From Rhodospirillales bacterium (GTDB lineage Bacteria > Pseudomonadota > Alphaproteobacteria > Rhodospirillales > Magnetovibrionaceae): a stretch of DNA of 64,000 nucleotides. A program made the translations under genes and the position numbers. Of the stretch, positions 49,257-64,000 are shown one piece after another (position 1 is the first letter of the stretch; the number at the start of each line of letters is the position of its first letter). The notes beneath the pieces were generated by a model that ran no database searches, was not told the origin of the DNA, and saw only the letters and a program-made list of their open reading frames with translations. The DNA lies in the NCBI GenBank assembly GCA_024653965.1, contig JANLGW010000071.1:1-64000 (forward strand). The letters run 5' to 3'.

Positions 49257-49817
49257 AACTAGGTGACCTGCTCCCCTGAAACATCCCCATTTTTGATCCG
49301 CAAATGCAAAACCGGCCAACACCCTGATTTTTCAGAATATTGACCGAATCTCGCGACACGCTAAGCTGTGAATACGACAAACTAAGCTGTTGTCGGGAAC
49401 ATTTTTAATTGAGACTGACGGCCTCATTTAGCCCATTTTGCACATTGATCTGTGGGAATGAGAGATAAGAAATATGGGAATGCACGGCAAAACACATTGA
49501 TAATTGAGAACATCCGCATATTAACATTATATATTTCAATTCATTATATGAAACGCGCGCCTAAATTGGATTTATTTTCTGGACCGAAAGCGGAGAGCTT
49601 TTAGTAATAATCCGAAAGCCAACTATAATTGGCATACTCGCTTAAGTTCAAAAAGGCGCAGAAAAATCCAGTGCCAAATGCGCCAATATGGCATGCAACC
49701 AATAGGAGATATTTTGCCATAGGAAGCTTCATACTAATAGGCTATGACTAAAGCTGTCACTCGATGGATAGAGTGCTGGGGCACCAACCTTCATAGGTGA
49801 GATCAGAGGGGGCGGCT
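49257..49817. other. AT-rich island leader with repeated transposon-end-like sites
   Basis: About 560 bp without a gene. It holds two 16-bp direct repeats 21 bp apart (see next entry) and the putative promoter of the kinase-helicase operon. Base composition drops sharply relative to dapF. Confidence 0.65.
49353..49390. repeat. Tandem transposase-binding-like repeats; one copy forms a 19-bp inverted repeat with 56737-56755
   Basis: CGACACGCTAAGCTGT (49354-49369) and CGACAAACTAAGCTGT (49375-49390) differ at two positions and are 21 bp apart. GCGACACGCTAAGCTGTGA (49353-49371) is found as its exact reverse complement at 56737-56755. Multiple ~20-bp spaced sites are typical of TniA/TnsB-bound transposon ends. 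Confidence 0.7.
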
Positions 49818-52800
49818 ATGTGGATAATAGCCTCGAGATTCGTTGTTAATGAGACAGTCGAACAACGAGAGGGCGGTATGGCTGATGTTTTGTGCGCCGT
49901 CGATACCAAGCGCTCTATGGAACCAGTCGCAGTTAAACTTTTTCGTGATGGTATTGTCGGCCCCAGCTTTGTTCTGGAAGCCTTTTCGAGGGAGTGTAGA
50001 TCGTTAGCCGAACTTAATAATCATCCAAGCATCATTCCTCTAATCGACTTTGGCACTGACCAGGATAGTGAACGTAAATATATAGCTTTGGCATGGGCAC
50101 CAGAAAATTTAGTTGATTATGTTAAAGCGCATCCTCTACTTGGTTGGGATGATTTTTATAACCGTTTTGGACGGGCAACGCTTAATGCGCTAGCATTTGC
50201 ATATTCTCGAAACATCATTCACCGCGACGTTAAACCGCAAAATGTCCTTTTGGATAGTGAATGTCATGTCAGGGTAGCAGATTTTGGTATCTCAAAGTTT
50301 CGCAAATACTATCGTCCTGGCGTCACTTTAGCGCACTTCAAAAGCATCCCATATGCGCCGGAGTTTGATTCCGAGGAATTTGCTGATAGTCGAGATGTCT
50401 ATAGTTATGCAGTGTTAGCGCTAGAGTGCTTGTCACCAAAACAGTTCACAGATTATGGCGACGTCTATCAATTCCTGGAGGATGAGGCGGACCTCCCTGA
50501 GGATGTTTACAACATCCTAAAAAAAGCACTCGAGCAGCAACCAACTGACCGATTCGCCAATGTATCCGATCTTCTCCATGAAATTGAAACTGCACAACGG
50601 GAACGCCAAAGGGCAACTGCGAACCGGTTACCCTGTCCTGTCTTGATCACCAATAACGCTTTGGACACCTGGATGTCTGAGATAGGAGTGCGTTCTGAAC
50701 AGAAGGCAAAAGATCGGCTGATTAACGAACTTAACGAACAATGTGGTATTGATCGCTGGCAGCACGCTGGCAAAGATACCGATCACTATGTGTTCATTAC
50801 TTCCGAGTTTAGATTTCAGGTAGATATTGCCAGGGAGGGTGAAGATAAGCTCATGATCTTAAATGTTGTCCGCGGGCAACCATCCCGTATGGAGCGTCTT
50901 AGAGAAAGTGCGTGGGTCGCGAATTTTGAATATCGATATGGTGCGCAAGGGGTAGATAGTGAAGGACCCGCAGCCATGCGGTGGCTTCAAGATGGTTTTG
51001 ACGAATTTCTAGTCGAAAGAAAGAAGCTGGAGGTTCAACGTCAGGAAGAAAAACTATTTGAGCGGTGGGGCGCACTTCTCAGACTGAAGTCTGAGATGGA
51101 GCAGTTGAGAGAAACTCCGATTGAGTATGATGGTGCTGGAGTCAATGGACATCGGATTTATCTAACAGTCGTGCGTGGAATTAGCTTAGCTCCTGAACTA
51201 ATGAATCAACCACGGATGATTAAGCACAATGACGGCAGAACGTTTACGGGTGTCATAGAAAACGTCGATAAAAATATTATCACTCTCTATTGCGATGTTC
51301 ACTACGCGCAGGAAATAATTCCCGCTCGAGGGCGATTAGTCTACGACACGCGCCGTGCTCAGGTTTCTATTAAACGTCAATTTTACTCATTAGATGCAGT
51401 TAAATACGATCGCGCATCACGGGCTGACCTCAGACATCTGTTGGTGGGCATTCAAGAGCCGCGAGTCCCAACGAATATTGCCGGACTCGACTACTTTCAA
51501 GCTGACCTAGATGAGGATAAACAGAAAGCCGTATTAGCTGCGTTGGGAACGCATGACTTTCTTGTAGTGGAAGGACCGCCTGGAACAGGGAAGACCAAGT
51601 TCATCACGGAACTGATTCTTCAATATGCGAGGCGCAATCCTGGCGCACGAATCTTGCTCTCATCTCAAACTCATAATGCCCTTGATAACGCACTTCACAA
51701 AGTTCGTGTGCTAGCGAAAGAGAAAAATATTCCGCTACGATTGGCTAGGATTGGACGGCGTGGTGAAGAGAAAATCGCAGCTGATGTTACGGATCTGATA
51801 CTAGAAAACAGTGTTGAGGCTTGGCTCCAATCCGCAGAGAAATCGTCCGAACTTTTTCTCGAGACCTGGGCGGTTAAAAATGGAATTAAGCTTGATATGG
51901 TTCGCACGGCAATGGCACTCGCCAATTTAAGACTTGCGAGCGGTCGGTTGCGTGAGGCAGAAGCAGATATGATAAGACTCAGCTCATTCAGGGATGAGCT
52001 AGAAATTGCGAAGCAAGACCTAGAAACTAGGCCAGAAAGGGGTGACGAACTCAGGGAAGCCCAAGAAAAACTTAATGTTTGCCTCCGTGATCTTTCCATC
52101 TCAGAAGCCGAGCTTAAGGATAAGACAGAGAAACGGAAAAAAGCATTTGAAAATGCTCAAAAGTTTCAAGATTTAAAAGACGATCTAGCTACCTTAGATG
52201 AGGCGGACATGGAAAGCCTTGAACAAGATTTTCTAGAACATGCTGAAGGTGGGGCTAAATGTCGACAATTAATAGATATAGTAGAAGAGTGGCGAGAGCG
52301 ATTTGGGCGTTCTTCAGATTTTAACGGCGCATATCTTTCGGGCTGCGATCTGGTTGCAGGCACCTGTCTTGGCATTGCAGGAATGGCATTGCAGTCTATT
52401 GAATTTGATTTGTGCATTGTTGACGAAGCGTCAAAAGCCACCCCAACAGAGATGCTTGTTCCCATTTCCAAGTCGAAGCGCTGGGTCGTGGTGGGAGACC
52501 CTAAACAACTTCCTCCTTATGTGGGCGACGTGATGGAGGACACCAAGTTATTAGTGGATTTTGGGATAAGCAGAGACGCCGTGAAGGAAACGTTGCTCGA
52601 TCACCTTCTCCAGAAATTGCCTGATTTTGCGAAAACTTCACTATTAACGCAGCATCGCATGATTCGGCCTATTGGTGAGCTGGTAAGCCATTGTTTTTAT
52701 GATGGAGCTTTACGTAACGTGAACGATAGCGTGGACCCTTGGATCACAAAGTTAGTTATGCCGAAGCCTGTAACATGGTTCACAACCTCCAAGATGAGTA

Positions 52801-53285
52801 ATCGCCAAGAACATGATTATCGTTCAGGTCAAAGGCGCGAGTTTAAGAACTATGCCGAACTTAAAGTTACAGAAAACTTTCTTAAGCGCCTCCAGTTTGC
52901 TGCAGAGCAAGGAAATAAGACTTATGAAGTGATTTTGCTATCTGGATATGTTGCCCAGGTTGGAGAATTAGAGAATTTAGCGCTTCGGCTCGCAAGGAAT
53001 ATTCCGAGACTACGAGTATTGCCAGGGACCGTTGATTCATTCCAGGGACGAGAGGCAGATGTGGTCATCTACTCGGTAACTAGGTCTAATGATGAGGGCA
53101 AAATTGGCTTCTTGAAGGAATGGCAGCGATTAAACGTAGCGCTTTCTCGGGCAAAAATTGGTCTTGCGATCATTGGCGACTCGCTTTTTTGTGAAAGTAT
53201 AAAAGGTCAAAATCCGTTCTCTGAAGTTTTGTCTTACATCAGGAGGCATCCGGAAGACTGCAAAATTGAGGAGGCTTTAACATGA
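49818..53285 (+). CDS. Ser/Thr protein kinase fused to SF1 (COG1112, Upf1-like) helicase
   Basis: 1155 residues from the ATG at 49818 (AGAGGGGG site). Kinase domain ~10-265: VAVKLF Lys ~40, HRDVKPQNVLL ~135 (catalytic Asp ~137), ADFGIS ~154, APE-like SIPYAPE. A middle region with coiled-coil-like helices precedes the helicase: Walker A GPPGTGKT ~585, an additional coiled coil ~700-800, Walker B VDEASKA ~867, GDPKQLPP ~893, SFQGREADVV ~1074 and LNVALSRAK. Such SF1B proteins act on RNA or DNA. In operon with a PLD protein and a PP2C phosphatase; overlaps the next gene by 4 bp. This resembles the MkoA-type protein of Mokosh defence systems, recalled from memory. AT-rich codon use differs from the core genome. 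Confidence 0.88.
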   Translation: MWIIASRFVVNETVEQREGGMADVLCAVDTKRSMEPVAVKLFRDGIVGPSFVLEAFSRECRSLAELNNHPSIIPLIDFGTDQDSERKYIALAWAPENLVDYVKAHPLLGWDDFYNRFGRATLNALAFAYSRNIIHRDVKPQNVLLDSECHVRVADFGISKFRKYYRPGVTLAHFKSIPYAPEFDSEEFADSRDVYSYAVLALECLSPKQFTDYGDVYQFLEDEADLPEDVYNILKKALEQQPTDRFANVSDLLHEIETAQRERQRATANRLPCPVLITNNALDTWMSEIGVRSEQKAKDRLINELNEQCGIDRWQHAGKDTDHYVFITSEFRFQVDIAREGEDKLMILNVVRGQPSRMERLRESAWVANFEYRYGAQGVDSEGPAAMRWLQDGFDEFLVERKKLEVQRQEEKLFERWGALLRLKSEMEQLRETPIEYDGAGVNGHRIYLTVVRGISLAPELMNQPRMIKHNDGRTFTGVIENVDKNIITLYCDVHYAQEIIPARGRLVYDTRRAQVSIKRQFYSLDAVKYDRASRADLRHLLVGIQEPRVPTNIAGLDYFQADLDEDKQKAVLAALGTHDFLVVEGPPGTGKTKFITELILQYARRNPGARILLSSQTHNALDNALHKVRVLAKEKNIPLRLARIGRRGEEKIAADVTDLILENSVEAWLQSAEKSSELFLETWAVKNGIKLDMVRTAMALANLRLASGRLREAEADMIRLSSFRDELEIAKQDLETRPERGDELREAQEKLNVCLRDLSISEAELKDKTEKRKKAFENAQKFQDLKDDLATLDEADMESLEQDFLEHAEGGAKCRQLIDIVEEWRERFGRSSDFNGAYLSGCDLVAGTCLGIAGMALQSIEFDLCIVDEASKATPTEMLVPISKSKRWVVVGDPKQLPPYVGDVMEDTKLLVDFGISRDAVKETLLDHLLQKLPDFAKTSLLTQHRMIRPIGELVSHCFYDGALRNVNDSVDPWITKLVMPKPVTWFTTSKMSNRQEHDYRSGQRREFKNYAELKVTENFLKRLQFAAEQGNKTYEVILLSGYVAQVGELENLALRLARNIPRLRVLPGTVDSFQGREADVVIYSVTRSNDEGKIGFLKEWQRLNVALSRAKIGLAIIGDSLFCESIKGQNPFSEVLSYIRRHPEDCKIEEALT

Positions 53286-54754
53286 CCAATGCGGCACAAA
53301 TCGCTCAATTGTTCGACGATCTAAAACCTGCTTTCTCACTAGTGGATTATGAGGAGGTCGGCTTGCCTGTGTATAAGCTAACGGCTACCGTTTTAACCTT
53401 GGAGTCCAAAAAATATTCGCCGATCGATGAGTTTGTGCTCAGAAGCATAGATGCGGGCATGATCATTGCGGATGATGTTGCAGGATTGCTGGGTATAGAA
53501 ACCCGAATTGTAGAAGGGTGTCTTACTAATCTCATCCAGGATGACGATGTGTTCGTATCTCCGACCGGAGACCTCTCTTTAACAAAAAAAAGTCGCTTGG
53601 TGCTTGAGGGAGAAAAACCCGTAAAGCCGAGAGAACAGGCTGTGGTGTTTACCTATGATGCGCTTACTCGTCGCCCGCGCTACATAGGTCTTCCTCTTAT
53701 TGGTCCCCGGGACCTTAAGGCAATGGGTTTCCGAGAAATACGTGCTATGCCACCTAGAAAGCCAGAGGCTGATGAAGTTGATGCCCGTGACCTTGAGGAA
53801 GCATTGGAAATGGAGGCTGGCACTAGAAAAAGGGATGTTGATATTCTTCGCGTTCGTGAAGTAAGACGCAAGGAAAACCACTTTCTACGCGCGGTAATGC
53901 TCATCTATCGATCTGGAGTTGGCGACGATGTACGGGTCCGGTTTGCGGTGGATGGGCGTTTGTCTGCGGAGCACGAAAAATCATTTTTAGCGGCGGGCGG
54001 TGTTGAGAGGCTGGGTATTCGAGATTCTATTCTCGACTCTGAACCGATCCCACCTCTAGTTGACTTAATCGGTGAGCAGTTAGTAACGGAGATTTCGGGC
54101 CATCTTTCTCCGGATGAAGATGCCGTGAAACTTAAAAGAAAATCCTCGATTGCACGATTTAAAGTCGAAACCGCTAAAAAAGGAGCTGTGTCGGAAGCTG
54201 ATTTAGACAAAGATTTGTCTTATTTAGCTGCAATTTCCGAAGTCGAGACAGCAGAACGGGAATTGGCCTCACTAAAAGTTCGTCCCATTGCTGTTTATGA
54301 ACATCCTCCATTGTTAGAAGATGCACTGGAGAGTGCTGAAAAGCGGGTGTTAATCATCTCGCCATGGATTACATCAGCTGTTGTTGACAAACGCTTCCTC
54401 AAGAGGCTGGAAGTTGCGTTGGAACGTGGCGTAGATGTGCGTATTGGATATGGGCTTGATGATAATCGAAGAGGCGGTCGCCCAGAACCGAATGCAGCCG
54501 AAAAGGCGCTTTATGATCTCGCCAAAAAGCATTCTCGATTGAAAGTGGTTTGGTTAGGTAATACTCATGCAAAGATACTGCTGAAAGACAGTGAATGGTT
54601 TGTTGTTTCAAGTTTCAACTGGCTGTCGTTTAGAGGCGATCCTCGTCGAACATTCCGTGAAGAATGGGGAACCTTTGTTGGCGTGAGCTCTGCTGTAGAT
54701 AAATATTTTGCTGAGTTTGCCCCGCGCTTTGAAATGACAGGAGCACGTGGATGA
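53282..54754 (+). CDS. Phospholipase D-family (HKD) protein
   Basis: 490 residues. The C-terminal ~170 residues are a PLD-like domain: RVLIISPWITSAVVDKRFLKRL, then the HKD motif HAKILLKD (H-x-K-x4-D), then SSFNWLS. Only one HKD motif is seen, so an active enzyme would need to dimerise. The N-terminal ~300 residues resemble no family I know. Start overlaps the kinase-helicase stop (ATGA), as does its end with the PP2C start, so translation is coupled. Predicted nuclease effector of the operon. Confidence 0.85.
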   Translation: MTNAAQIAQLFDDLKPAFSLVDYEEVGLPVYKLTATVLTLESKKYSPIDEFVLRSIDAGMIIADDVAGLLGIETRIVEGCLTNLIQDDDVFVSPTGDLSLTKKSRLVLEGEKPVKPREQAVVFTYDALTRRPRYIGLPLIGPRDLKAMGFREIRAMPPRKPEADEVDARDLEEALEMEAGTRKRDVDILRVREVRRKENHFLRAVMLIYRSGVGDDVRVRFAVDGRLSAEHEKSFLAAGGVERLGIRDSILDSEPIPPLVDLIGEQLVTEISGHLSPDEDAVKLKRKSSIARFKVETAKKGAVSEADLDKDLSYLAAISEVETAERELASLKVRPIAVYEHPPLLEDALESAEKRVLIISPWITSAVVDKRFLKRLEVALERGVDVRIGYGLDDNRRGGRPEPNAAEKALYDLAKKHSRLKVVWLGNTHAKILLKDSEWFVVSSFNWLSFRGDPRRTFREEWGTFVGVSSAVDKYFAEFAPRFEMTGARG

Positions 54755-55494
54755 TCAATGGATATGATTCTATCATCCGTGTGTGGGCAGCTACAGATGT
54801 TGGTAAAGTGCGCGAAGAAAATGAAGATTGTGTTGGTGCGGGTGATCAAATCCTTCAATCCTCTTCGGGGCGTTTTGATCTTAGGTTCTCGATTGGTGAT
54901 GAGGCCATCGCTGTTGTCGTAGCAGATGGTGTAGGAGGAAGCCGCGGCGGAAAGGTAGCATCTGGATTGGCAGTCTCGGGCTTTCTTAGCCGGTGCATTT
55001 ATGGTGCTGATGTACCGTCTTTAGTATCAGTTCTTGGTGAGATTTCTGAGCGTATTCGTCTTGCATGCGCGCAAGACTCGGCCACCAGAGGCGGCTCCAC
55101 TACATTAGCAGGGTTGGTTTTTACTCGTTCAGGTGGAATCGCTTTCAATGTAGGCGACAGCCGTATCTATCTACTTATTGAAAATGAACTTATCACGCTG
55201 TCCCGAGATCATGTTTCTACTGCTGATCCCCGTATGTTGACGAAGTTTCTCGGTGGCAGTGGAAGCGCTGCTATGCCGCATGTTCATCAATTTAATTTTG
55301 AGAAAAGTGTACGTTTTCTCATTTGCTCTGATGGACTTTATAGTGTCTTGCCACATGCGGCTTTAGTTCAAATGACATCGCTATTGAATGGAGAAGTTGC
55401 AGTGAATTCTCTCATGGATGCAGCTTTGACAGCAGGGGCTCCCGATAATGTTTCGCTCGCTGTTTGTGACTATTTATACGCCAGTCACACGTAA
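54751..55494 (+). CDS. PP2C-type Ser/Thr phosphatase
   Basis: 247 residues. Metal-binding and catalytic motifs of PPM phosphatases: ATDVGKVREENED, VVVADGVGG, NVGDSRIYLL, SDGLYSVLP and APDNVSLAVC. It would reverse the phosphorylation made by the upstream kinase-helicase. Start overlaps the PLD gene. Its stop at 55492-55494 directly abuts a tniB remnant. Confidence 0.88.
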   Translation: MINGYDSIIRVWAATDVGKVREENEDCVGAGDQILQSSSGRFDLRFSIGDEAIAVVVADGVGGSRGGKVASGLAVSGFLSRCIYGADVPSLVSVLGEISERIRLACAQDSATRGGSTTLAGLVFTRSGGIAFNVGDSRIYLLIENELITLSRDHVSTADPRMLTKFLGGSGSAAMPHVHQFNFEKSVRFLICSDGLYSVLPHAALVQMTSLLNGEVAVNSLMDAALTAGAPDNVSLAVCDYLYASHT

Positions 55495-55750: not shown

Positions 55751-56197
55751 TTAGTCGTCTTTCGACTTCTGTCTTTCGAGGTAAGCTCCGATTGCAGAGC
55801 CGATTAAACCGCCAAGCACTGTGCCAATAACCGGAATTGCCGAACCAGCAACGACACCAAACGCCGCCCCACTGGCTCCGGAGATAATCGAACCGGCCAG
55901 CGCCCCCCCTCCAACTGCACCAACGACGACCTTCAACCCCTTTCTTACGGCGCCTATCTCCCCTTCCCTAGCAGCACCGAGGATAGCTTCGGAAGTGGTG
56001 TCGAGAAAATCTGCAGCAATCCGAAGTTGGTCAACGGAGAGCGTAGCCTCTCCTTTTTCAATCCGCGACCAATTGGACGGACTTACACCGACAGCTGCTG
56101 CTAGATCGCTTTGCCTGAGGTTCTTCGCCTTACGTAATACGACTAAGGTTTGGCCGAGCACAGCGCCTGTCGTGGTAACTAGGGTAGGGGTTTCCAC
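55751..56197 (-). CDS. XRE-type regulator with glycine-zipper membrane tail
   Basis: 148 residues. HTH at ~12-70 (LVVLRKAKNLRQSDLAAAVGVSPSNWSRIEKGEATLS). The C-terminal ~60 residues are a hydrophobic Gly/Ala zipper (GAVGGGALAGSIISGASGAAFGVVAGSAIPVIGTVLGGLIGSAIG). The combination of repressor and membrane-inserting tail is unusual and could couple DNA binding to membrane state. A 14-bp inverted repeat lies 74 bp upstream. Confidence 0.72.
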   Translation of the reverse strand: METPTLVTTTGAVLGQTLVVLRKAKNLRQSDLAAAVGVSPSNWSRIEKGEATLSVDQLRIAADFLDTTSEAILGAAREGEIGAVRKGLKVVVGAVGGGALAGSIISGASGAAFGVVAGSAIPVIGTVLGGLIGSAIGAYLERQKSKDD

Positions 56198-56808: not shown

Positions 56809-57882
56809 TTAGGCCGCGCGTTTCTTCTTTCGGTCCTTACTGCTCGACACCGCCTCAAGATGCTTAATGATAGAAAGCCCAATTATCTCTCCAAGTCGTA
56901 CAGGAACAGCGTTTCCTATCAGGCGACCTACGGTCTTGAAATTGGGTTTTGAGCCAGGGGGAATGAATTGATAATCCTTAGGGAAAGTTTGAAGCATTGC
57001 AGCCTCCCGAAGAGATATGGCCCTATCTTGTTTAGGATGCCCAAAACGACCATTCCCGAAGCCGTAGCATTGCGTTGTCATCGTTGGAGAAGGCGCATCC
57101 CACCGCATCCGACCATAAACTCCAGAATAGGTCTTGCCCGATTTCTTCTTATGGCAACGTGCAACTAGGCTCTTCGGCCAATCTCGCCAAGTCCCCCCTG
57201 GCTTGGAGGCTTTGATGCGTTTTAGATTTGTACTTGAGAGAACGCTCGCTACGTGAAGTGGGTCCTTCGGATCTTTATCACCAGCATAAAGATGGGCAAG
57301 GCCCTCAATCGTATTGCGAACAGTTTGCCAACTGTTCTTCTCAAGATGTGTCGGTTTGATTATTTCGATTGGGCCAAGCAATGAGGCGAGCAAGACGAGG
57401 CGGCGGCGTGTTTGAGGTACGCCATAATGGTGGCAATTTACTTGGTCGAACCAAACATGATAGCCAAGGTCCTCTAATGTTTTTTTGAACTTTTGGAAGA
57501 CAGCGTGCTTTTTGAGTTGAGCAACGTTCTCCATACTGACGAGCTCTGGGCGAACATCCTTAACGATTCTGCTGAATGCATTCAGCAAGCCCCACTTCTC
57601 TTTTCCATAATCGATTTTACCGCGGGTGTAAGAAGAGAAGGGTTGACACGGTGCACAGCCTGCTATGAGTCTTACATCGTTCCCGGTTAAATAGGCTGAG
57701 ATAGTTTCGGATGTAAGAGTGGTTACATCCTCTTTTAAAAATGTGGCATCGTTATTGAATTCATAAGGATATTTGCATGCCGAATCAATGTCGATGCCCA
57801 TACGAACATCAATGCCTACATTTGCAAGTCCTCTGGTAAGCCCGCCGGCACCGCAGAACAAATCGACTGCTTTGATTTTCAT
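56809..57882 (-). CDS. C5 cytosine DNA methyltransferase
   Basis: 357 residues from the ATG at 57882. AVDLFCGAGGLTRGL (motif I), GCAPCQPFSSYTRG (motif IV, catalytic Cys ~79), MENVAQL (motif VI), QTRRRLVLLAS (motif VIII) and a C-terminal RLIGNAVPV block (motif X). The target-recognition region lies between ~215 and 265. No obvious restriction gene is next to it, although the 213-residue gene upstream is unidentified. AT-richer than the core. Confidence 0.92.
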   Translation of the reverse strand: MKIKAVDLFCGAGGLTRGLANVGIDVRMGIDIDSACKYPYEFNNDATFLKEDVTTLTSETISAYLTGNDVRLIAGCAPCQPFSSYTRGKIDYGKEKWGLLNAFSRIVKDVRPELVSMENVAQLKKHAVFQKFKKTLEDLGYHVWFDQVNCHHYGVPQTRRRLVLLASLLGPIEIIKPTHLEKNSWQTVRNTIEGLAHLYAGDKDPKDPLHVASVLSSTNLKRIKASKPGGTWRDWPKSLVARCHKKKSGKTYSGVYGRMRWDAPSPTMTTQCYGFGNGRFGHPKQDRAISLREAAMLQTFPKDYQFIPPGSKPNFKTVGRLIGNAVPVRLGEIIGLSIIKHLEAVSSSKDRKKKRAA

Positions 57883-58002: not shown

Positions 58003-58644
58003 TTATGCGACATCATTCAAAGGGAGAAGCTTTTTGAGCGATATGCTGTATATGGCTGTTTTTAACTTCGTCAATAGGTCATTATGCATTTCTCGTCCGT
58101 AAAGAGAAACGGTTGCATAGGCAGCAACGTCTTTCGGGGTAACCCCTATTTCCTCTGTGACTAATATGGGAAATGCTGGAGTGCTGTCATCTATGTAGGG
58201 TGCCGACGCTGGCCAAAATTGGGAATTAGAGAAATTATTATTGAACTGCGCGTGCCAATATTTATGTTTATTACGAGCATGCGGAGATTCAAATCGAAAG
58301 CCATAAACTTGATTTTCTGCACGTTTGATCATTATTTCAAGTTTGCAGGTTGAAAAATCTTTATCAGTTTTTTTATCAAAACTCCATTCAGCCCAAAGGG
58401 CTATTACTGCGTTTTGCATCCCGCTTGGGGGGCGGAGGTAAAAAACTTTATTTCCGAAAGTCCCCGACGAGTGGGTTAGTAATCTGTTGATCTCATATTC
58501 AGAGGCAATCCACTGCCAACTTCCAAGTTCGGCAACGCGGTTCCGTATCCCGGGAGTTGTAATTCTTTCGTTTCGAGCTTTCTCGCCGTCTCGATACAAG
58601 GCAACTATCAAGTCCTTAAAATGCTTCATGCCTGTCGCATCCAT
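58003..58644 (-). CDS. Unknown protein in the GHKL/receiver operon
   Basis: 213 residues with a GAGGGGGG ribosome site, 16 bp after the receiver-like gene. Mixed alpha/beta; motifs such as VIALWAEWSFDKKTDKDFSTCKLEIMIKRAENQVYGFRFESPHARNKHKYWHAQFNNNF do not match a family I know. Acidic and Lys residues are present but no clear PD-(D/E)xK motif could be assigned. Could be an effector or restriction-like partner; not claimed. Confidence 0.6.
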   Translation of the reverse strand: MDATGMKHFKDLIVALYRDGEKARNERITTPGIRNRVAELGSWQWIASEYEINRLLTHSSGTFGNKVFYLRPPSGMQNAVIALWAEWSFDKKTDKDFSTCKLEIMIKRAENQVYGFRFESPHARNKHKYWHAQFNNNFSNSQFWPASAPYIDDSTPAFPILVTEEIGVTPKDVAAYATVSLYGREMHNDLLTKLKTAIYSISLKKLLPLNDVA

Positions 58645-58660: not shown

Positions 58661-59923
58661 TTAGGCTAGCCGAACCTTTGGGGCATAGCGGATGTCTGGA
58701 TTGCTCAGCCCGGCCTTAGAAATATATCGACTGGCCCATAATGAATTGAAGGCTGCAGTGAATTCCTCGCACTCAGCAATTGGCGCAAAGCGAGAAAAAT
58801 CTTCCTGAAAGACATAGCCCGCGTCACTGCTGTCTTTAAATGACAGATAGGCATTGTCTATTTCAGGGCTAGTTTGGACGTCGTTCAGCCAGTACGTTGT
58901 TTTCGATAACCAGCACTCTTTATCGAACTTAAAACTATTTTTGATTAGGCTATTCTTGAAAAGGTCGTTCCCGGAAAGTGACACATATTTATCCCATGTC
59001 TCCTGTGATGAAGTGTCACCTTCGACAAGCCAGGGCATACGTTGTGCCAGATGAGGAACATCAATAAGGGTGTCTTGTGCGGCAAGAACCATATCATTTA
59101 ACCAGCGACGCAGTTCTGAAACGACAATGCGTATTGCAGTAAGTCGCATTATGTCATCTGAAAGTTGGTCTGCAAGATATGTTCTGATGTCAGCATCAAT
59201 ACTAACACATCCATTCTTCAAGAAATCGGCGAAGGTTGCTTTTTCTGGAGCAGAGCTTTCGGGGTTAAGAATGCCAAGAGCGGAGCGCGAAAGGGAACCC
59301 AAACGCTCTTCACTGAAGTCAAAATAATCTAGGATACGTGTGGTGAAATCCACTTTGGCCATGCTTGATATGCACGTTTCTACATCGTTGATTACTTGTG
59401 GCAGTGATGGCCATTGCCATGGGCGGAAATTGCATTTTTCTCCGGTTGTCATCGCTGATGTAGACAGTGTCCAAAGGCCTGGATTTTCGAGAAATTTGTC
59501 ATTCATATGCAAATCTGCTGCAGTTTGAGTTGGCGGCAGCATTGATAGGTCGAAGTCGCGCTCTTGGAATCGATTCAGGACAATGACAAAGGGAATTCCT
59601 GCAAAGGCTCGGAATAGTCCCGCAAGGTCTTCTGCGGTTAACCATCCGTGGTCTGCAAGCTGAGGCAACTGAAAGTCAATAAATAAAACGTCAGTATCAT
59701 GAAGAGCCTCAAGATTATTGTGCCAGGTATTAGGCTCGTTTTCCCAGTTATCGCCATCGTTCTTCCGCATTCCAGCCGCAAACTTAACGAGAGATGCCGC
59801 GAGCTCATGATCGCAGGGGTGAACCTGAGCATCAATGGTGGCCGCTTTAAGTGCATTCTTAATGCTGTTAGTGCTCGCCTCTTCATTTGCTTGGCGATCA
59901 TCGAGAACTCGAATCTTCATCAT
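58661..59923 (-). CDS. Receiver-like N-terminus with unknown C-terminal region
   Basis: 420 residues from the ATG at 59923 (or 59920), overlapping the end of the GHKL gene; AAAGGAAA ribosome site. Residues ~1-130 resemble a receiver: acidic pair in VLDDR (~8-9) and a phosphoacceptor-like Asp in VLFIDFQLP (~83). A ~30-residue insertion precedes the Asp, and the usual Thr/Ser and Lys are not clear (VIVLNRF). The C-terminal ~290 residues (helical, Trp-rich) match nothing I know. Likely receives phosphate from the upstream histidine-kinase-like protein. Confidence 0.65.
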   Translation of the reverse strand: MMKIRVLDDRQANEEASTNSIKNALKAATIDAQVHPCDHELAASLVKFAAGMRKNDGDNWENEPNTWHNNLEALHDTDVLFIDFQLPQLADHGWLTAEDLAGLFRAFAGIPFVIVLNRFQERDFDLSMLPPTQTAADLHMNDKFLENPGLWTLSTSAMTTGEKCNFRPWQWPSLPQVINDVETCISSMAKVDFTTRILDYFDFSEERLGSLSRSALGILNPESSAPEKATFADFLKNGCVSIDADIRTYLADQLSDDIMRLTAIRIVVSELRRWLNDMVLAAQDTLIDVPHLAQRMPWLVEGDTSSQETWDKYVSLSGNDLFKNSLIKNSFKFDKECWLSKTTYWLNDVQTSPEIDNAYLSFKDSSDAGYVFQEDFSRFAPIAECEEFTAAFNSLWASRYISKAGLSNPDIRYAPKVRLA

Positions 59924-59924
59924 G

Positions 59925-62117
59925 TTATTTTTCCTTTGGCGCCGACCAAGAAAGTTCGAAAGTAGTCGAAAAACCAGATTCAGGTTCAATGAATCGAGCT
60001 CTGCATTTTCGGTTTTCGGCAATCATTCTTACGATTGTGAGGCCAAGACCATGCCCGCCTAGCCCCATTGATTTTCTATCTTTGGAAATGTCCCCCTTAC
60101 GCTTGAAGGGTTCGAAAAAGTCTTCGGAGTGGGAAAGATCAATGCCGCTTCCGTTGTCCGAAATACGAACCCAGGCCCTTAAGCCGGGCCCACGGCCTGA
60201 GGAAATTCGAAGCTGTCGTTTGCCTCGTGTCTCGACCATAGCGTTCAGTGCATTCGTAATAACATTTTGGAATAGGCCGTGCCATTCAGCGAGTGTCGCA
60301 TAGGGAAGGCGCATTTTTTCGTCAACAGTGAAATCAATATCAACCCCACCTAAAAACGGTGAAAGGTTGCTTTGAGCGAGTTTCAATACACGCTCTGCTC
60401 TAAGCGAAGATATTGTTTCACGATCCTCTTTATCGGCGAGGGGTTCGAATACCTGCCTCATTCGACGGATGCGTGCGATCCACTCACACATTTCCTGGTA
60501 GATTTCGTTAGACAGACGTTTGTCACCACTCAAGCCTTTGATGCGGAGAGCAATGTTATCCAAAACGCTCAGTTCGCGCCCCATCTCGTGATCAAGAGCT
60601 AGGGCTGCCATTCCGGCCGTTGCCAGAGGGCCAAGCATTGCGGCAAGAACATCTCGATAATTCTGCTCGCGTTTTGCCGTATCCACGAACGAGCTGAGTT
60701 CATGAGTGAGGTCGTGGTATACATCCTCTGGAATGGCGGCTTTATGTGCAACCAGAACATGTTGTACCTTCTCAAGACCTGCGTCAGCGCTTTCATCTGG
60801 CCGATCATATTTTGCCTGTTCGAGATTTCGACGCATGGACTCGACAGCGTAAAGATCCAGAGAGAGACGGACAGCGTTGCGTAATTGCTCATAGGCAGTA
60901 TTGATTTGTAGCCTATCGCGCGTTACCTGCATTTTGAGAAAATGCCGTGCTGATTTCTTGTTTTTGGGTGCGCGCTGCATTTCATGGCCAGTGTCAACTC
61001 GCACTACCCCTAAAATTCGCCCTTGTGTTGGGAGATCATTCAGCGCTCGTTCGACGTGGTAGTGATCGGGGAGTAACTTTGATTTTACCTTGCGGTGCGA
61101 GTGGTCGTACTCCAAACCGAGCCAATCTTGCTGGATGCCATAGTAGGGCAGCCTGAAGGGGCCATCGTAAACATGAACACCGCCAAATTCAGAAAAGTAC
61201 TCTCGAGCATCTCCAACCTTTATGTGCTGTCCTAAATGACCGGACAAATTGAAGATACGAATTTCCCAGGTGGCATTATCAACTTGACAGTTCTCAATCG
61301 GGAAGGATTCCCTGACGGTCGTTCCATCTTTGAATGTAACGGTTACTAACTGGCGTTGAGTTTTCCAGCCATTTTCAATCTTACCTTCAATTTTTGCTAT
61401 CCACAGGCCAATTGCAGCTTTGACTTGGGTTTCAAAGGTATCGCTACCTGGAATGGAAGGTGCAATGAGGTGAATTCGAAAATCTTTCGCCTTATCGTGC
61501 CCCCCCTTACCCGCGAAGCCATCAAAGGGGGGGCGTAGCGTCCATACCTCTTTTGCTAGTCCTGCAAGTGAAGCAGAATCCCACTCTTGCTGAAGTCCGC
61601 TGAGGATAATGCGAAAACCGTGCTTTTGCTCTTCGGTATAGCGGATGTCTTTGTTTACTAATTCATACTCGGCGGTGGCTTCTGTCAGGTATTCATGCTC
61701 TACGGCTGAATCCCAGTCGACATCAACGAGTAGTGTTTTCGTGCTCCCTTTGGCGGTGGTCTCTATGTGAACTTTGTGAGCCAAAAACTGGACGGCGAGC
61801 CTCCCAACGCCTTTGGAGCCTGTCATCGGGCGCTCAAGTTCGGGAGAAATAGCTTTCTGTTGCTTATGCGTTGTGCCGACTCTCATCCAATATTTGGTAA
61901 AGTCGTCCAGCCCCATTCCGTGGCCATTATCCACAATTTCGACTGTATCATTGCCGAAAGTAATCTTACAGGCGAGAGCGTCGGCGTCGTACGCATTCTT
62001 TACTAACTCAGCAAGTGCAATATGAGCTTTTCCAACCAAACGTTCGCCCAATTCTTTAAGCAGGGCGGAATCTACCGTGAAGGTTAAAATATCTTTGGAT
62101 TTTTGTTCCAATTCCAT
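59925..62117 (-). CDS. Dual-GHKL histidine-kinase-like ATPase
   Basis: 730 residues from the ATG at 62117. N-terminal Hsp90/MutL/MORC-style ATPase: ELVKNAYDADA (N box, ~37), IVDNGHGM (~63), GSKGVGRLAVQF (~100). A ~250-residue middle region, then an H-box-like ALDHEMGRELSVL with His ~510, and a second, histidine-kinase HATPase_c: NALNAM, ISDNGSGI and GLGGHGLGLTIV (~686). Two ATPase folds in one protein, one sensor-like and one kinase-like, are unusual. Its receiver-like partner overlaps its 3' end. Directly downstream of tniB with a 50-bp gap. Confidence 0.8.
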   Translation of the reverse strand: MELEQKSKDILTFTVDSALLKELGERLVGKAHIALAELVKNAYDADALACKITFGNDTVEIVDNGHGMGLDDFTKYWMRVGTTHKQQKAISPELERPMTGSKGVGRLAVQFLAHKVHIETTAKGSTKTLLVDVDWDSAVEHEYLTEATAEYELVNKDIRYTEEQKHGFRIILSGLQQEWDSASLAGLAKEVWTLRPPFDGFAGKGGHDKAKDFRIHLIAPSIPGSDTFETQVKAAIGLWIAKIEGKIENGWKTQRQLVTVTFKDGTTVRESFPIENCQVDNATWEIRIFNLSGHLGQHIKVGDAREYFSEFGGVHVYDGPFRLPYYGIQQDWLGLEYDHSHRKVKSKLLPDHYHVERALNDLPTQGRILGVVRVDTGHEMQRAPKNKKSARHFLKMQVTRDRLQINTAYEQLRNAVRLSLDLYAVESMRRNLEQAKYDRPDESADAGLEKVQHVLVAHKAAIPEDVYHDLTHELSSFVDTAKREQNYRDVLAAMLGPLATAGMAALALDHEMGRELSVLDNIALRIKGLSGDKRLSNEIYQEMCEWIARIRRMRQVFEPLADKEDRETISSLRAERVLKLAQSNLSPFLGGVDIDFTVDEKMRLPYATLAEWHGLFQNVITNALNAMVETRGKRQLRISSGRGPGLRAWVRISDNGSGIDLSHSEDFFEPFKRKGDISKDRKSMGLGGHGLGLTIVRMIAENRKCRARFIEPESGFSTTFELSWSAPKEK

Positions 62118-62173
62118 CCCCAAGGAGCTGCAATTATGTTAACTTGACTCTACAACAATGTTTTAAATGAATG

Positions 62174-63067
62174 TTACACACCCGTCACCTTCAACCTATC
62201 TCCAGGCGAAGTCCATCGGATTTCATTGAGCATATCAAAACTCAATTTTTTGCGCCCTGTGGTTTCAGCAAGCTCTATGAGCCTGCAGACGATTTCCCGG
62301 GTTTCGCCGGTAAGGCCATCACTCATGGCATGGACCCGACGGATAAATTTTGGCGATGTTACGACAGCGTCTATTCCCTCAAAATCGAGACTTAAACATA
62401 GACTTGCGACGAATTCGCCGTATTCATCTCCAAGCTCCCACTGCGGCAGGTAAAAGGGCTCAAATCGGCTACCGAATTGGCGGTCCAAGTGTATGGCGCG
62501 ATGTGCCTCCTCCGTGCCGACGGCAATAATGGAAATGCGCAATTGATTCGAAAGGGCCTTGATCGCGTTCAGGAACTGACCTTGCTGGTCCAATCCGCCA
62601 TCGAGGATGTGGTGAATTTCATCAATAATCAGAATCCTAGTTTTTAACCGGCGGAGCAAGGTGATGACTTGATCCCGCTTTCTATCAACGGACATCGTTG
62701 CGCGGACCGCGGCCCCAAAGCTGTCGAGGATATTGCTGTACAGCGAACCTATTCGTGGCGCTTCAGGGGTTTGCACCATGAGTACTGGTATGATGGAAGC
62801 CTCGGAGTGTTCTTTTACGGCAGGGTTGGCTTCCAACATGAATCGTTCGCACAATAGCGACTTTCCAGCATTTGCTTTCCCGTAAACTAGGCAACACGGC
62901 GGTCGGTTAGTTTCTGGATATGCTAAAATTCGGTGGAAGCGATTGAGGCCTTCATCAGCAATCTTATAGTTCACCCAGCGTTGTCCAAAAAAACGTCGCA
63001 TATGCTCGAATAGATCGAGTCGCGTTTCGTTGGAAGAAACAATTGAAATTGGGTCTTTTAACGGCAT
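62174..63067 (-). CDS. tniB: TniB/TnsC-like transposition ATPase
   Basis: 297 residues from the ATG at 63067 (GGAGGG site), overlapping the tniA stop by 10 bp. Walker A VYGKANAGKSLLCERF, Walker B ILIIDEIHHIL, sensor IIAVGTEE. It activates and targets the TniA transposase in Tn5053/Tn402-type and CRISPR-associated transposons. No tniQ follows; the GHKL gene takes its place. Confidence 0.92.
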   Translation of the reverse strand: MPLKDPISIVSSNETRLDLFEHMRRFFGQRWVNYKIADEGLNRFHRILAYPETNRPPCCLVYGKANAGKSLLCERFMLEANPAVKEHSEASIIPVLMVQTPEAPRIGSLYSNILDSFGAAVRATMSVDRKRDQVITLLRRLKTRILIIDEIHHILDGGLDQQGQFLNAIKALSNQLRISIIAVGTEEAHRAIHLDRQFGSRFEPFYLPQWELGDEYGEFVASLCLSLDFEGIDAVVTSPKFIRRVHAMSDGLTGETREIVCRLIELAETTGRKKLSFDMLNEIRWTSPGDRLKVTGV

Positions 63068-64000
63068 TTTTGTTCCCTCCACCGTTTCTTCAGTGCTTCA
63101 AGATCGATATTGAGCGGTTTCTCGTTTTCATCCTCCACTGTGTTATCAACGACCACCTGAGGGGTGATGGGTGCAACAGGAAAGTCCCGCAGGGAATTGT
63201 TGCGGTTTTTCACTTTTTGTTTTTCTAGAGCTTGTTTTTTAGACACTTTTTTCTTGGATTTCTTGGCAGACTCAACGAGTTCGTCACGTCGATCACGAGA
63301 TCGATCAATTCGTTCGAGGTGATCAGGGTTCTGCCCTGTTGATTTTTTTAGCTTTTGATAAGCCCTGAGTTCCCAAAGGGTGTTAACAGCTGGCGACCTT
63401 CGGCTCATCGCGATTTCTTCGTATTCCTTGGTGTCTGGATTTTTAAAATAGATTTTGGTGATGTCACGTGGGTCATACTTGACCGTAAATTTTTCATTGA
63501 TTCGTCCTCGCTTTCTCTTAATGAATTTTTTTAGGCTGGGTGAATAGTAGTGCATCGTGTCCCAGGAAATTCCGTCGCGCTGAACTGTCCGTTCAATGTG
63601 GGGGAGAAACGAGATTTTAAATGCTTCAGGATTCTGTATTGGAGGAAGCTGCCCGATCGAACGACCTTTCGAGCCAAACTTAAGACCATCGTTCCATTTT
63701 TGTATTGGGGACATTCCAATCCCACGATGTTCCGTCAGGTGATAGTCGTTCACGATCCAATCAACGATCCAGTGGTATAAAATGTCATATGTTAAAGCTG
63801 CTTCCTTGGGTGAGTTGTATTCCCCTTTTTGCTTGGGGTTCGAAAATGTTGTGCCTGGTAGCGTATGAATCTCATCTCCTAATCGCTTCATCATGCGCTC
63901 TATATGGCCGCCAAATTCAGGCCGCTTAACGGGCCTTCGCTGGAGATTAATCCCATGTTCCTCGCAAGCCGTTAGGATCAGGTTGCTGCATAAATCTTTG
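63058..64000 (-). CDS. tniA: TniA/TnsB-like DDE transposase, 5' part outside window
   Basis: Open to the window edge, so only the C-terminal ~314 residues are present. They include the end of the rve catalytic core (RPVKRPEFGGHIERMMKRLGDEIHTLPGTTF, with the last catalytic Glu in HIERMM) and the Mu-type C-terminal beta-barrel (IQKWNDG, KKFIKRKRGRINEKFTVKYDPRDITKIYF). The Lys/Ser-rich tail KKSKKKVSKKQALEKQK probably contacts TniB. Confidence 0.92.
   Translation of the reverse strand, partial: KDLCSNLILTACEEHGINLQRRPVKRPEFGGHIERMMKRLGDEIHTLPGTTFSNPKQKGEYNSPKEAALTYDILYHWIVDWIVNDYHLTEHRGIGMSPIQKWNDGLKFGSKGRSIGQLPPIQNPEAFKISFLPHIERTVQRDGISWDTMHYYSPSLKKFIKRKRGRINEKFTVKYDPRDITKIYFKNPDTKEYEEIAMSRRSPAVNTLWELRAYQKLKKSTGQNPDHLERIDRSRDRRDELVESAKKSKKKVSKKQALEKQKVKNRNNSLRDFPVAPITPQVVVDNTVEDENEKPLNIDLEALKKRWREQKCR

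What the first reader, a model, noticed from the sequence alone, without database searches (positions are those of the whole stretch)
59925..62117. One polypeptide with two GHKL ATPase folds
The N-terminal ATPase (NAYDAD, DNGHGM, GSKGVGRLA) is of the chaperone/MutL type, while the C-terminal one (DNGSGI, GLGGHGLGLTIV) is of the histidine-kinase type. The first could sense a ligand or infection signal by ATP-driven clamp closure and gate phosphorylation by the second.
Basis: partly seen in the sequence, partly recalled or inferred. Interest (0 to 1): 0.6.

Follow-up and report, generated by a model that had tools for sequence, protein, structure and literature searches.

The report
Double-ATPase sensor kinase of defence operon
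One protein joins a DNA-clamp-type ATPase to a histidine kinase and sits in an operon with a receiver protein, an unknown small protein and a DNA methyltransferase, so it is probably the sensor of a bacterial antivirus module; the same domain layout was predicted in 2021, but this is a separate branch that the published family models do not detect.

Summary
The 730-aa ORF lies on the MINUS strand (59925-62117) and carries two GHKL domains: HATPase_c_3 (residues 32-154, E=2.4e-23; MutL/PMS2/MORC3-like) and HATPase_c (615-722, E=1.2e-18). The second belongs to a histidine-kinase core: residues 464-705 match FixL/CpxA/EnvZ, and a phosphoacceptor-type His510 is present in all 28 close and 113 distant relatives. 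The layout is not new: Bellieny-Rabelo 2021 (PMC8011034) predicted such proteins paired with receiver-like proteins and C5 methyltransferases. The two Pfam models from that work (PF19191, PF19192) do not match these proteins, and this subfamily forms its own clade (SH-aLRT 100). The gene heads an operon: kinase, 420-aa receiver protein (pLDDT 90, CheY-like residues 1-184, Asp83 invariant), 213-aa protein with an invariant R...HxxxHxQ motif, C5 methyltransferase. It is the first gene after tniB of a Tn7-like element, between Mokosh and a type I R-M. In related operons the third gene is an HNH (PtuB-like) or MBL-fold protein, which points to an effector slot. Best reading: a methylation-linked defence module that signals by phosphotransfer. 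Sensing, phosphotransfer and effector activity are untested.

The parts
59925..62117 (-). Dual-GHKL sensor kinase ORF, 730 aa, stop included (ATG at 62117; TTG at 62123 also possible)
61656..62024 (-). N-terminal GHKL (HATPase_c_3, residues 32-154); E37/N41, D63xGxG, GxKGxGR
60588..60590 (-). His510, phosphoacceptor-type His of the DHp (H-box) segment, 108 residues before the N box
59952..60275 (-). C-terminal GHKL / histidine-kinase CA domain (HATPase_c, residues 615-722)
58661..59923 (-). Receiver-type partner protein, 420 aa; starts 1 nt after the kinase stop
59372..59923 (-). Receiver (REC) fold, residues 1-184; D8/D9, D83, N117 invariant or nearly so; canonical Lys not conserved
58664..59371 (-). 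Conserved C-terminal domain of the receiver protein (W274, D288xPH, E374-D375, R399), no assigned fold
58003..58644 (-). Third protein, 213 aa, invariant R117...H127xxxH131xQ133; likely effector slot
56809..57882 (-). C5-cytosine DNA methyltransferase (PCQ, ENV, QTRRR motifs intact; closest PADLOC model DrmMII)
62174..63082 (-). TniB (TnsC-like) AAA ATPase of the Tn7-like element carrying the operon
63058..63999 (-). TniA/TnsB-like transposase, continues beyond the window

Best explanation
A cytoplasmic sensor kinase of a DNA-methylation-linked antiviral signalling module. The N-terminal MutL/MORC-type GHKL module, related to the ATPase module of BbrUII/HgiDII-type restriction enzymes, probably engages foreign or unmodified DNA (or a protein-DNA complex) and changes shape with ATP (inferred). 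That change lets the C-terminal kinase domain phosphorylate His510 (inferred), the phosphate passes to Asp83 of the adjacent receiver protein (inferred), and the receiver's C-terminal domain together with the 213-aa HxxxHxQ protein carries out the antiviral act (inferred). The C5 methyltransferase marks self DNA (inferred). Shown: the domains, their conserved catalytic residues, the operon, the conserved gene order, and the swapping of the third gene for HNH or MBL proteins in related operons.
For: Both GHKL domains and the kinase core. His510, N618 and N622 conserved in 141 of 141 dual-GHKL proteins of all classes; E37/N41 too, but the collection scan was seeded on that motif. Receiver fold from AlphaFold (pLDDT 90, pTM 0.91); almost all top structural rows are receiver domains at Z 8.4-9.2; hhalign to canonical receivers E=1.3e-6, 90%. 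Kinase-receiver-third gene order in nearly all close relatives, C5 MTase within about 5 kb in at least 25 of 28 (L039 has an annotated dcm as well). Third gene is HNH/PtuB-like or MBL (RTasMBL/LmuA-like) in related clades. N terminus hits the BbrUII/HgiDII restriction enzyme model, E=3.7e-28 over residues 14-191. Defence-island setting: Mokosh (MkoA 2e-211, MkoB 1e-72), type I R-M, Tn7-like genes. Many relatives lie on IMG/VR (viral or proviral) contigs.
Against: No biochemistry or phage assay. The receiver lacks the conserved Lys and has Asn117 where canonical receivers have Thr/Ser, so phosphotransfer may be atypical or absent. The DHp segment alone matches HisKA only weakly (hhalign E=0.045). 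No fold or enzyme could be assigned to the 213-aa protein or to the receiver's C-terminal domain. DNA sensing by the N-terminal module is by analogy only.
Confidence: 0.6

Rival explanations
1. Ordinary regulatory two-component system that controls expression or activity of the neighbouring restriction-modification genes (the speculation of Bellieny-Rabelo 2021).
For: Histidine-kinase core and receiver partner next to a C5 MTase; authors' proposal.
Against: No recognised DNA-binding output domain in the receiver protein; the third gene is swapped for HNH or MBL proteins in related operons, which suits an effector better than a transcription regulator.
Confidence: 0.15
2. A multi-subunit restriction enzyme in which the histidine-kinase and receiver folds serve assembly and allostery, not phosphotransfer; cutting is done by the receiver C-terminal domain or the 213-aa protein.
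For: N terminus resembles GHKL restriction enzymes; MTase in the operon; receiver has lost the Lys and the Thr/Ser.
Against: His510 and the acidic receiver sites D8 and D83 are invariant in 28 of 28; all kinase boxes intact.
Confidence: 0.17
3. Mismatch-repair-like helper of the C5 methyltransferase (MutL/Vsr-style repair of deaminated 5mC).
For: MutL/PMS2 similarity of the N-terminal GHKL; Vsr genes near related loci (PMC8011034).
Against: Histidine-kinase core and receiver have no place in such a scheme; mobile, patchy distribution.
Confidence: 0.04

Closest known systems
HEF_HK / Response_reg_2 predicted two-component systems (Bellieny-Rabelo 2021, PMC8011034; Pfam PF19191, PF19192)
   Same: HATPase_c_3 + DHp-like segment + HATPase_c in one soluble protein; adjacent receiver-like gene; C5 MTase close by.
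   Different: Neither Pfam model detects this kinase or its partner; HEF members found here are about 980-990 aa with a 525-647 aa partner, against 730 and 420 aa; separate clade; extra HxxxHxQ gene.
MORC/paraMORC GHKL ATPases of R-M systems (Iyer 2008, PMC2292703) and GHKL-type restriction enzymes (BbrUII/HgiDII; GHKL Shedu VcSduA, PMC12137116)
   Same: N-terminal GHKL module with all motifs, R-M context.
   Different: C terminus is a histidine kinase, not a nuclease; the effector is in separate genes.
Detocs (defensive two-component system; own knowledge, paper not held in the library)
   Same: Kinase, receiver and interchangeable effector, as a concept.
   Different: Different sensor; methyltransferase in the operon; homology not tested.
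Canonical sensor kinases FixL, CpxA, EnvZ
   Same: DHp+CA core, H510 to N618 spacing of 108 residues.
   Different: No membrane or PAS sensor; the sensor position holds a second ATPase.

Membership tests
GHKL ATPase, MutL/MORC type (N-terminal domain) | Motif E-x2-KN-x2-DA-D, DxGxG, GxKGxGR and profile match | tested here: met
MORC/paraMORC | S5-type domain following GHKL | tested here: inconclusive
   Residues 195-430 are conserved but no PDB sequence match covers them; no model of the kinase was made.
Histidine kinase | CA domain with N, G1, F, G2 boxes | tested here: met
Histidine kinase | DHp helices with phosphoacceptor His | tested here: met
   H510-E511 invariant; residues 464-705 align to FixL/CpxA DHp+CA; DHp alone vs HisKA weak
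Histidine kinase | Autophosphorylation | not testable with these tools
   needs protein
Response regulator receiver (partner protein) | (beta-alpha)5 CheY-like fold, DD and phosphoacceptor Asp | tested here: met
Response regulator receiver (partner protein) | Conserved Thr/Ser and Lys of the active site | tested here: not met
   Asn117 invariant in place of Thr/Ser, no conserved Lys
HEF_HK / Response_reg_2 family | Pfam PF19191 over cut-off in the kinase | tested here: not met
   no hit at E<=1 in the window protein; 2 of 27 relatives at E<=0.1, best 0.0038
HEF_HK / Response_reg_2 family | Pfam PF19192 in the partner | tested here: not met
HEF_HK / Response_reg_2 family | HATPase_c_3 + DHp + HATPase_c layout, adjacent receiver-like gene, C5 MTase near | tested here: met
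Type II restriction-modification system | Methyltransferase with intact catalytic motifs | tested here: met
Type II restriction-modification system | Recognisable endonuclease in the operon | tested here: inconclusive
   none recognised by Pfam, PADLOC or fold search; two domains unassigned
Detocs | Homology to DtcA/DtcB | not tested
   no Detocs model or paper known to be at hand; no Detocs hit among the PADLOC rows

The most novel reading that the evidence does not exclude
A restriction-modification system in which the restriction enzyme is replaced by a phosphorelay: a DNA-sensing MORC-type ATPase switches on a histidine kinase, and the phosphorylated receiver unleashes an exchangeable effector (HxxxHxQ protein here, HNH or MBL proteins in sister operons), with DNA methylation as the self mark.
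Probability: 0.4. Interest if true: 0.75.

Novelty: new variant of a known kind. Interest (0 to 1): 0.47.

Why it matters
If right, it would link self/non-self DNA recognition to two-component signalling, show a MORC-type ATPase acting as the input of a kinase, and add a widespread, modular and apparently untested defence chassis (bacteria, archaea, plasmids, proviral contigs). The locus makes a compact test case: four genes with clear point mutations in each step. It also shows that the published Pfam models cover only part of the family.

Tried and rejected
Reading the + strand: full of stops. Filing it as HEF_HK: Pfam models do not match. Function of the 213-aa protein by fold: AlphaFold pLDDT 82.9, pTM 0.84, but no Foldseek hit at E<=0.001 in PDB or BFVD and best VIA Z 4.3; several weak E2-like rows (Z about 3) were not taken as evidence. 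Receiver C-terminal domain: structural rows cover residues 1-184 only, so it is untested rather than fold-less. DHp alone against HisKA gives E=0.045, so the DHp claim rests on the joint DHp+CA match. Ends of the Tn7-like element were not found by a simple repeat scan. TniB/TniA relatives were not found in the other fetched loci, so the transposon looks like a local carrier, not part of the system. Literature: one 2026 paper (PMC13092281) lists a predicted, unvalidated system with HATPase and REC domains in a figure legend; whether it is this family could not be told.

Full report
OBSERVATION. The ORF lies on the minus strand, 59925-62117 (732 aa if the TTG at 62123 is used). hmmscan finds HATPase_c_3 (2.4e-23) and HATPase_c (1.2e-18) in one chain. 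A profile of 27 relatives (A6) searched against PDB chains matches MutL, PMS2, MORC3 and HtpG with residues 28-127 and FixL, CpxA, EnvZ and others with residues 464-720. The second GHKL is therefore the CA domain of a histidine-kinase core that includes a DHp segment; His510 (LDHEMGREL) lies 108 residues before the N box, a normal spacing for sensor kinases (own knowledge).

PRIOR WORK. The layout HATPase_c_3 + DHp-like + HATPase_c, paired with a receiver-like gene and enriched near C5 methyltransferases, was published as a prediction in 2021 (PMC8011034; [quoted passage not shown] The window proteins do not match these models. True HEF_HK proteins found in the same class of bacteria are about 980-990 aa and have 525-647 aa partners. 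In a tree of 68 dual-GHKL kinases the window protein sits in a clade of its own type (support 100), away from HEF.

OPERON. On the minus strand the kinase is followed after 1 nt by a 420-aa protein, then 16 nt later by a 213-aa protein, then a C5 MTase with intact PCQ, ENV and QTRRR motifs. The same kinase-receiver-third gene order recurs in the relatives fetched from Pseudomonadota, Actinomycetota, Chloroflexota, Acidobacteriota, Poribacteria, a Hodarchaeota MAG and IMG/VR contigs. A C5 MTase relative lies within about 5 kb in at least 25 of 28 loci; in many it is the same close MTase family (E below 1e-100).

RECEIVER PARTNER. AlphaFold gives pLDDT 90.0 and pTM 0.91. Residues 1-184 align to CheY, PhoB, Spo0F and other receivers (VIA Z 8.4-9.2, rmsd about 3-3.5 over 103-122 residues for most rows); profile alignment to 29 canonical receivers of the same genome gives 90% and E=1.3e-6 and places D8/D9 and D83 on the acidic pair and the phosphoacceptor. 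D8 and D83 are invariant in 28 sequences, D9 in 27. The canonical Thr/Ser is an invariant Asn117 and the Lys is missing, so phosphorylation needs direct proof. The C-terminal half is conserved but unassigned.

THIRD GENE AND EFFECTOR SWAPPING. The 213-aa protein has four invariant residues, R117, H127, H131 and Q133; a good model (pLDDT 82.9) has no clear structural relative. In the nearest sister class the third gene often carries HPxxHxQ, with a local profile match to ours (E=8.4e-5, probability 60%). In two other clades the receiver is a free ~210-240 aa protein and the next gene is an HNH protein resembling PtuB of Septu, or an MBL-fold protein resembling RTasMBL/LmuA; each of these classes is monophyletic in the kinase tree. 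By position, the 213-aa protein is therefore likely an effector or effector partner.

BOTH ATPASES KEPT. Over 141 dual-GHKL proteins, E37, N41, H510, N618 and N622 are invariant and the glycine boxes nearly so. The collection scans were seeded on N-terminal motifs, so conservation of E37/N41 is partly by construction; that of H510 and the C-terminal boxes is not.

SETTING. The operon follows tniB by 56 nt in a Tn7-like set (TniB, TniA/TnsB, a putative TnsA, TniQ). On one side lies a Mokosh system (MkoA E=2e-211, MkoB 1e-72, plus a PP2C-like gene), on the other a type I R-M. This is a defence island. The N-terminal module also hits the BbrUII/HgiDII restriction enzyme model over residues 14-191 (E=3.7e-28) and two PADLOC type II restriction enzyme models.

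MECHANISM. Shown: domains, catalytic residues, operon, conserved order, effector-slot swapping, defence neighbourhood. Inferred: DNA or infection sensing by the N-terminal clamp, gating of the kinase, phosphotransfer H510 to D83, effector release, self-marking by the MTase.

VERDICT. A real, conserved double-GHKL sensor kinase; a distinct, unmodelled subfamily of a published predicted kind. New variant of a known kind, interest 0.47.

Noticed in passing
window 49797-55494 (+): Mokosh type I defence system: MkoA kinase-helicase (PADLOC 2e-211), MkoB PLD protein (1e-72), followed by a PP2C-like phosphatase gene overlapping its end by 4 nt, with no PADLOC match.
   Followed up: partly
window 62174-64000 and L209:4175-8945 (C71 62174-66944): Tn7-like transposition set on the minus strand: TniB, TniA, a putative TnsA-like nuclease (judged by eye), TniQ; the kinase operon is the first cargo after tniB. 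Element ends not found.
   Followed up: partly
L209:9385-15789 (C71 67384-73788): Type I R-M locus (HsdR supported by PADLOC; HsdS-like and HsdM-like by eye, plus a 267-aa gene between S and M) next to the Tn7-like element.
   Followed up: no
L107, L095, L113, L135, L140, L151, L152, L081, L117: Dual-GHKL kinase, stand-alone receiver and MBL-fold protein as a three-gene operon; a clade of its own in cyanobacteria, Pseudomonadota and Actinomycetota.
   Followed up: partly
L141, L161, L164, L168, L171, L180, L189, L196-L199, L201 (viral contigs): Dual-GHKL kinase, stand-alone receiver and HNH protein like PtuB (Septu) as an operon on (pro)viral contigs.
   Followed up: partly
window 55751-56197 (-): HTH protein with a glycine/alanine-rich C-terminal half, weakly like CapH-type regulators, between Mokosh and the MTase.
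   Followed up: no
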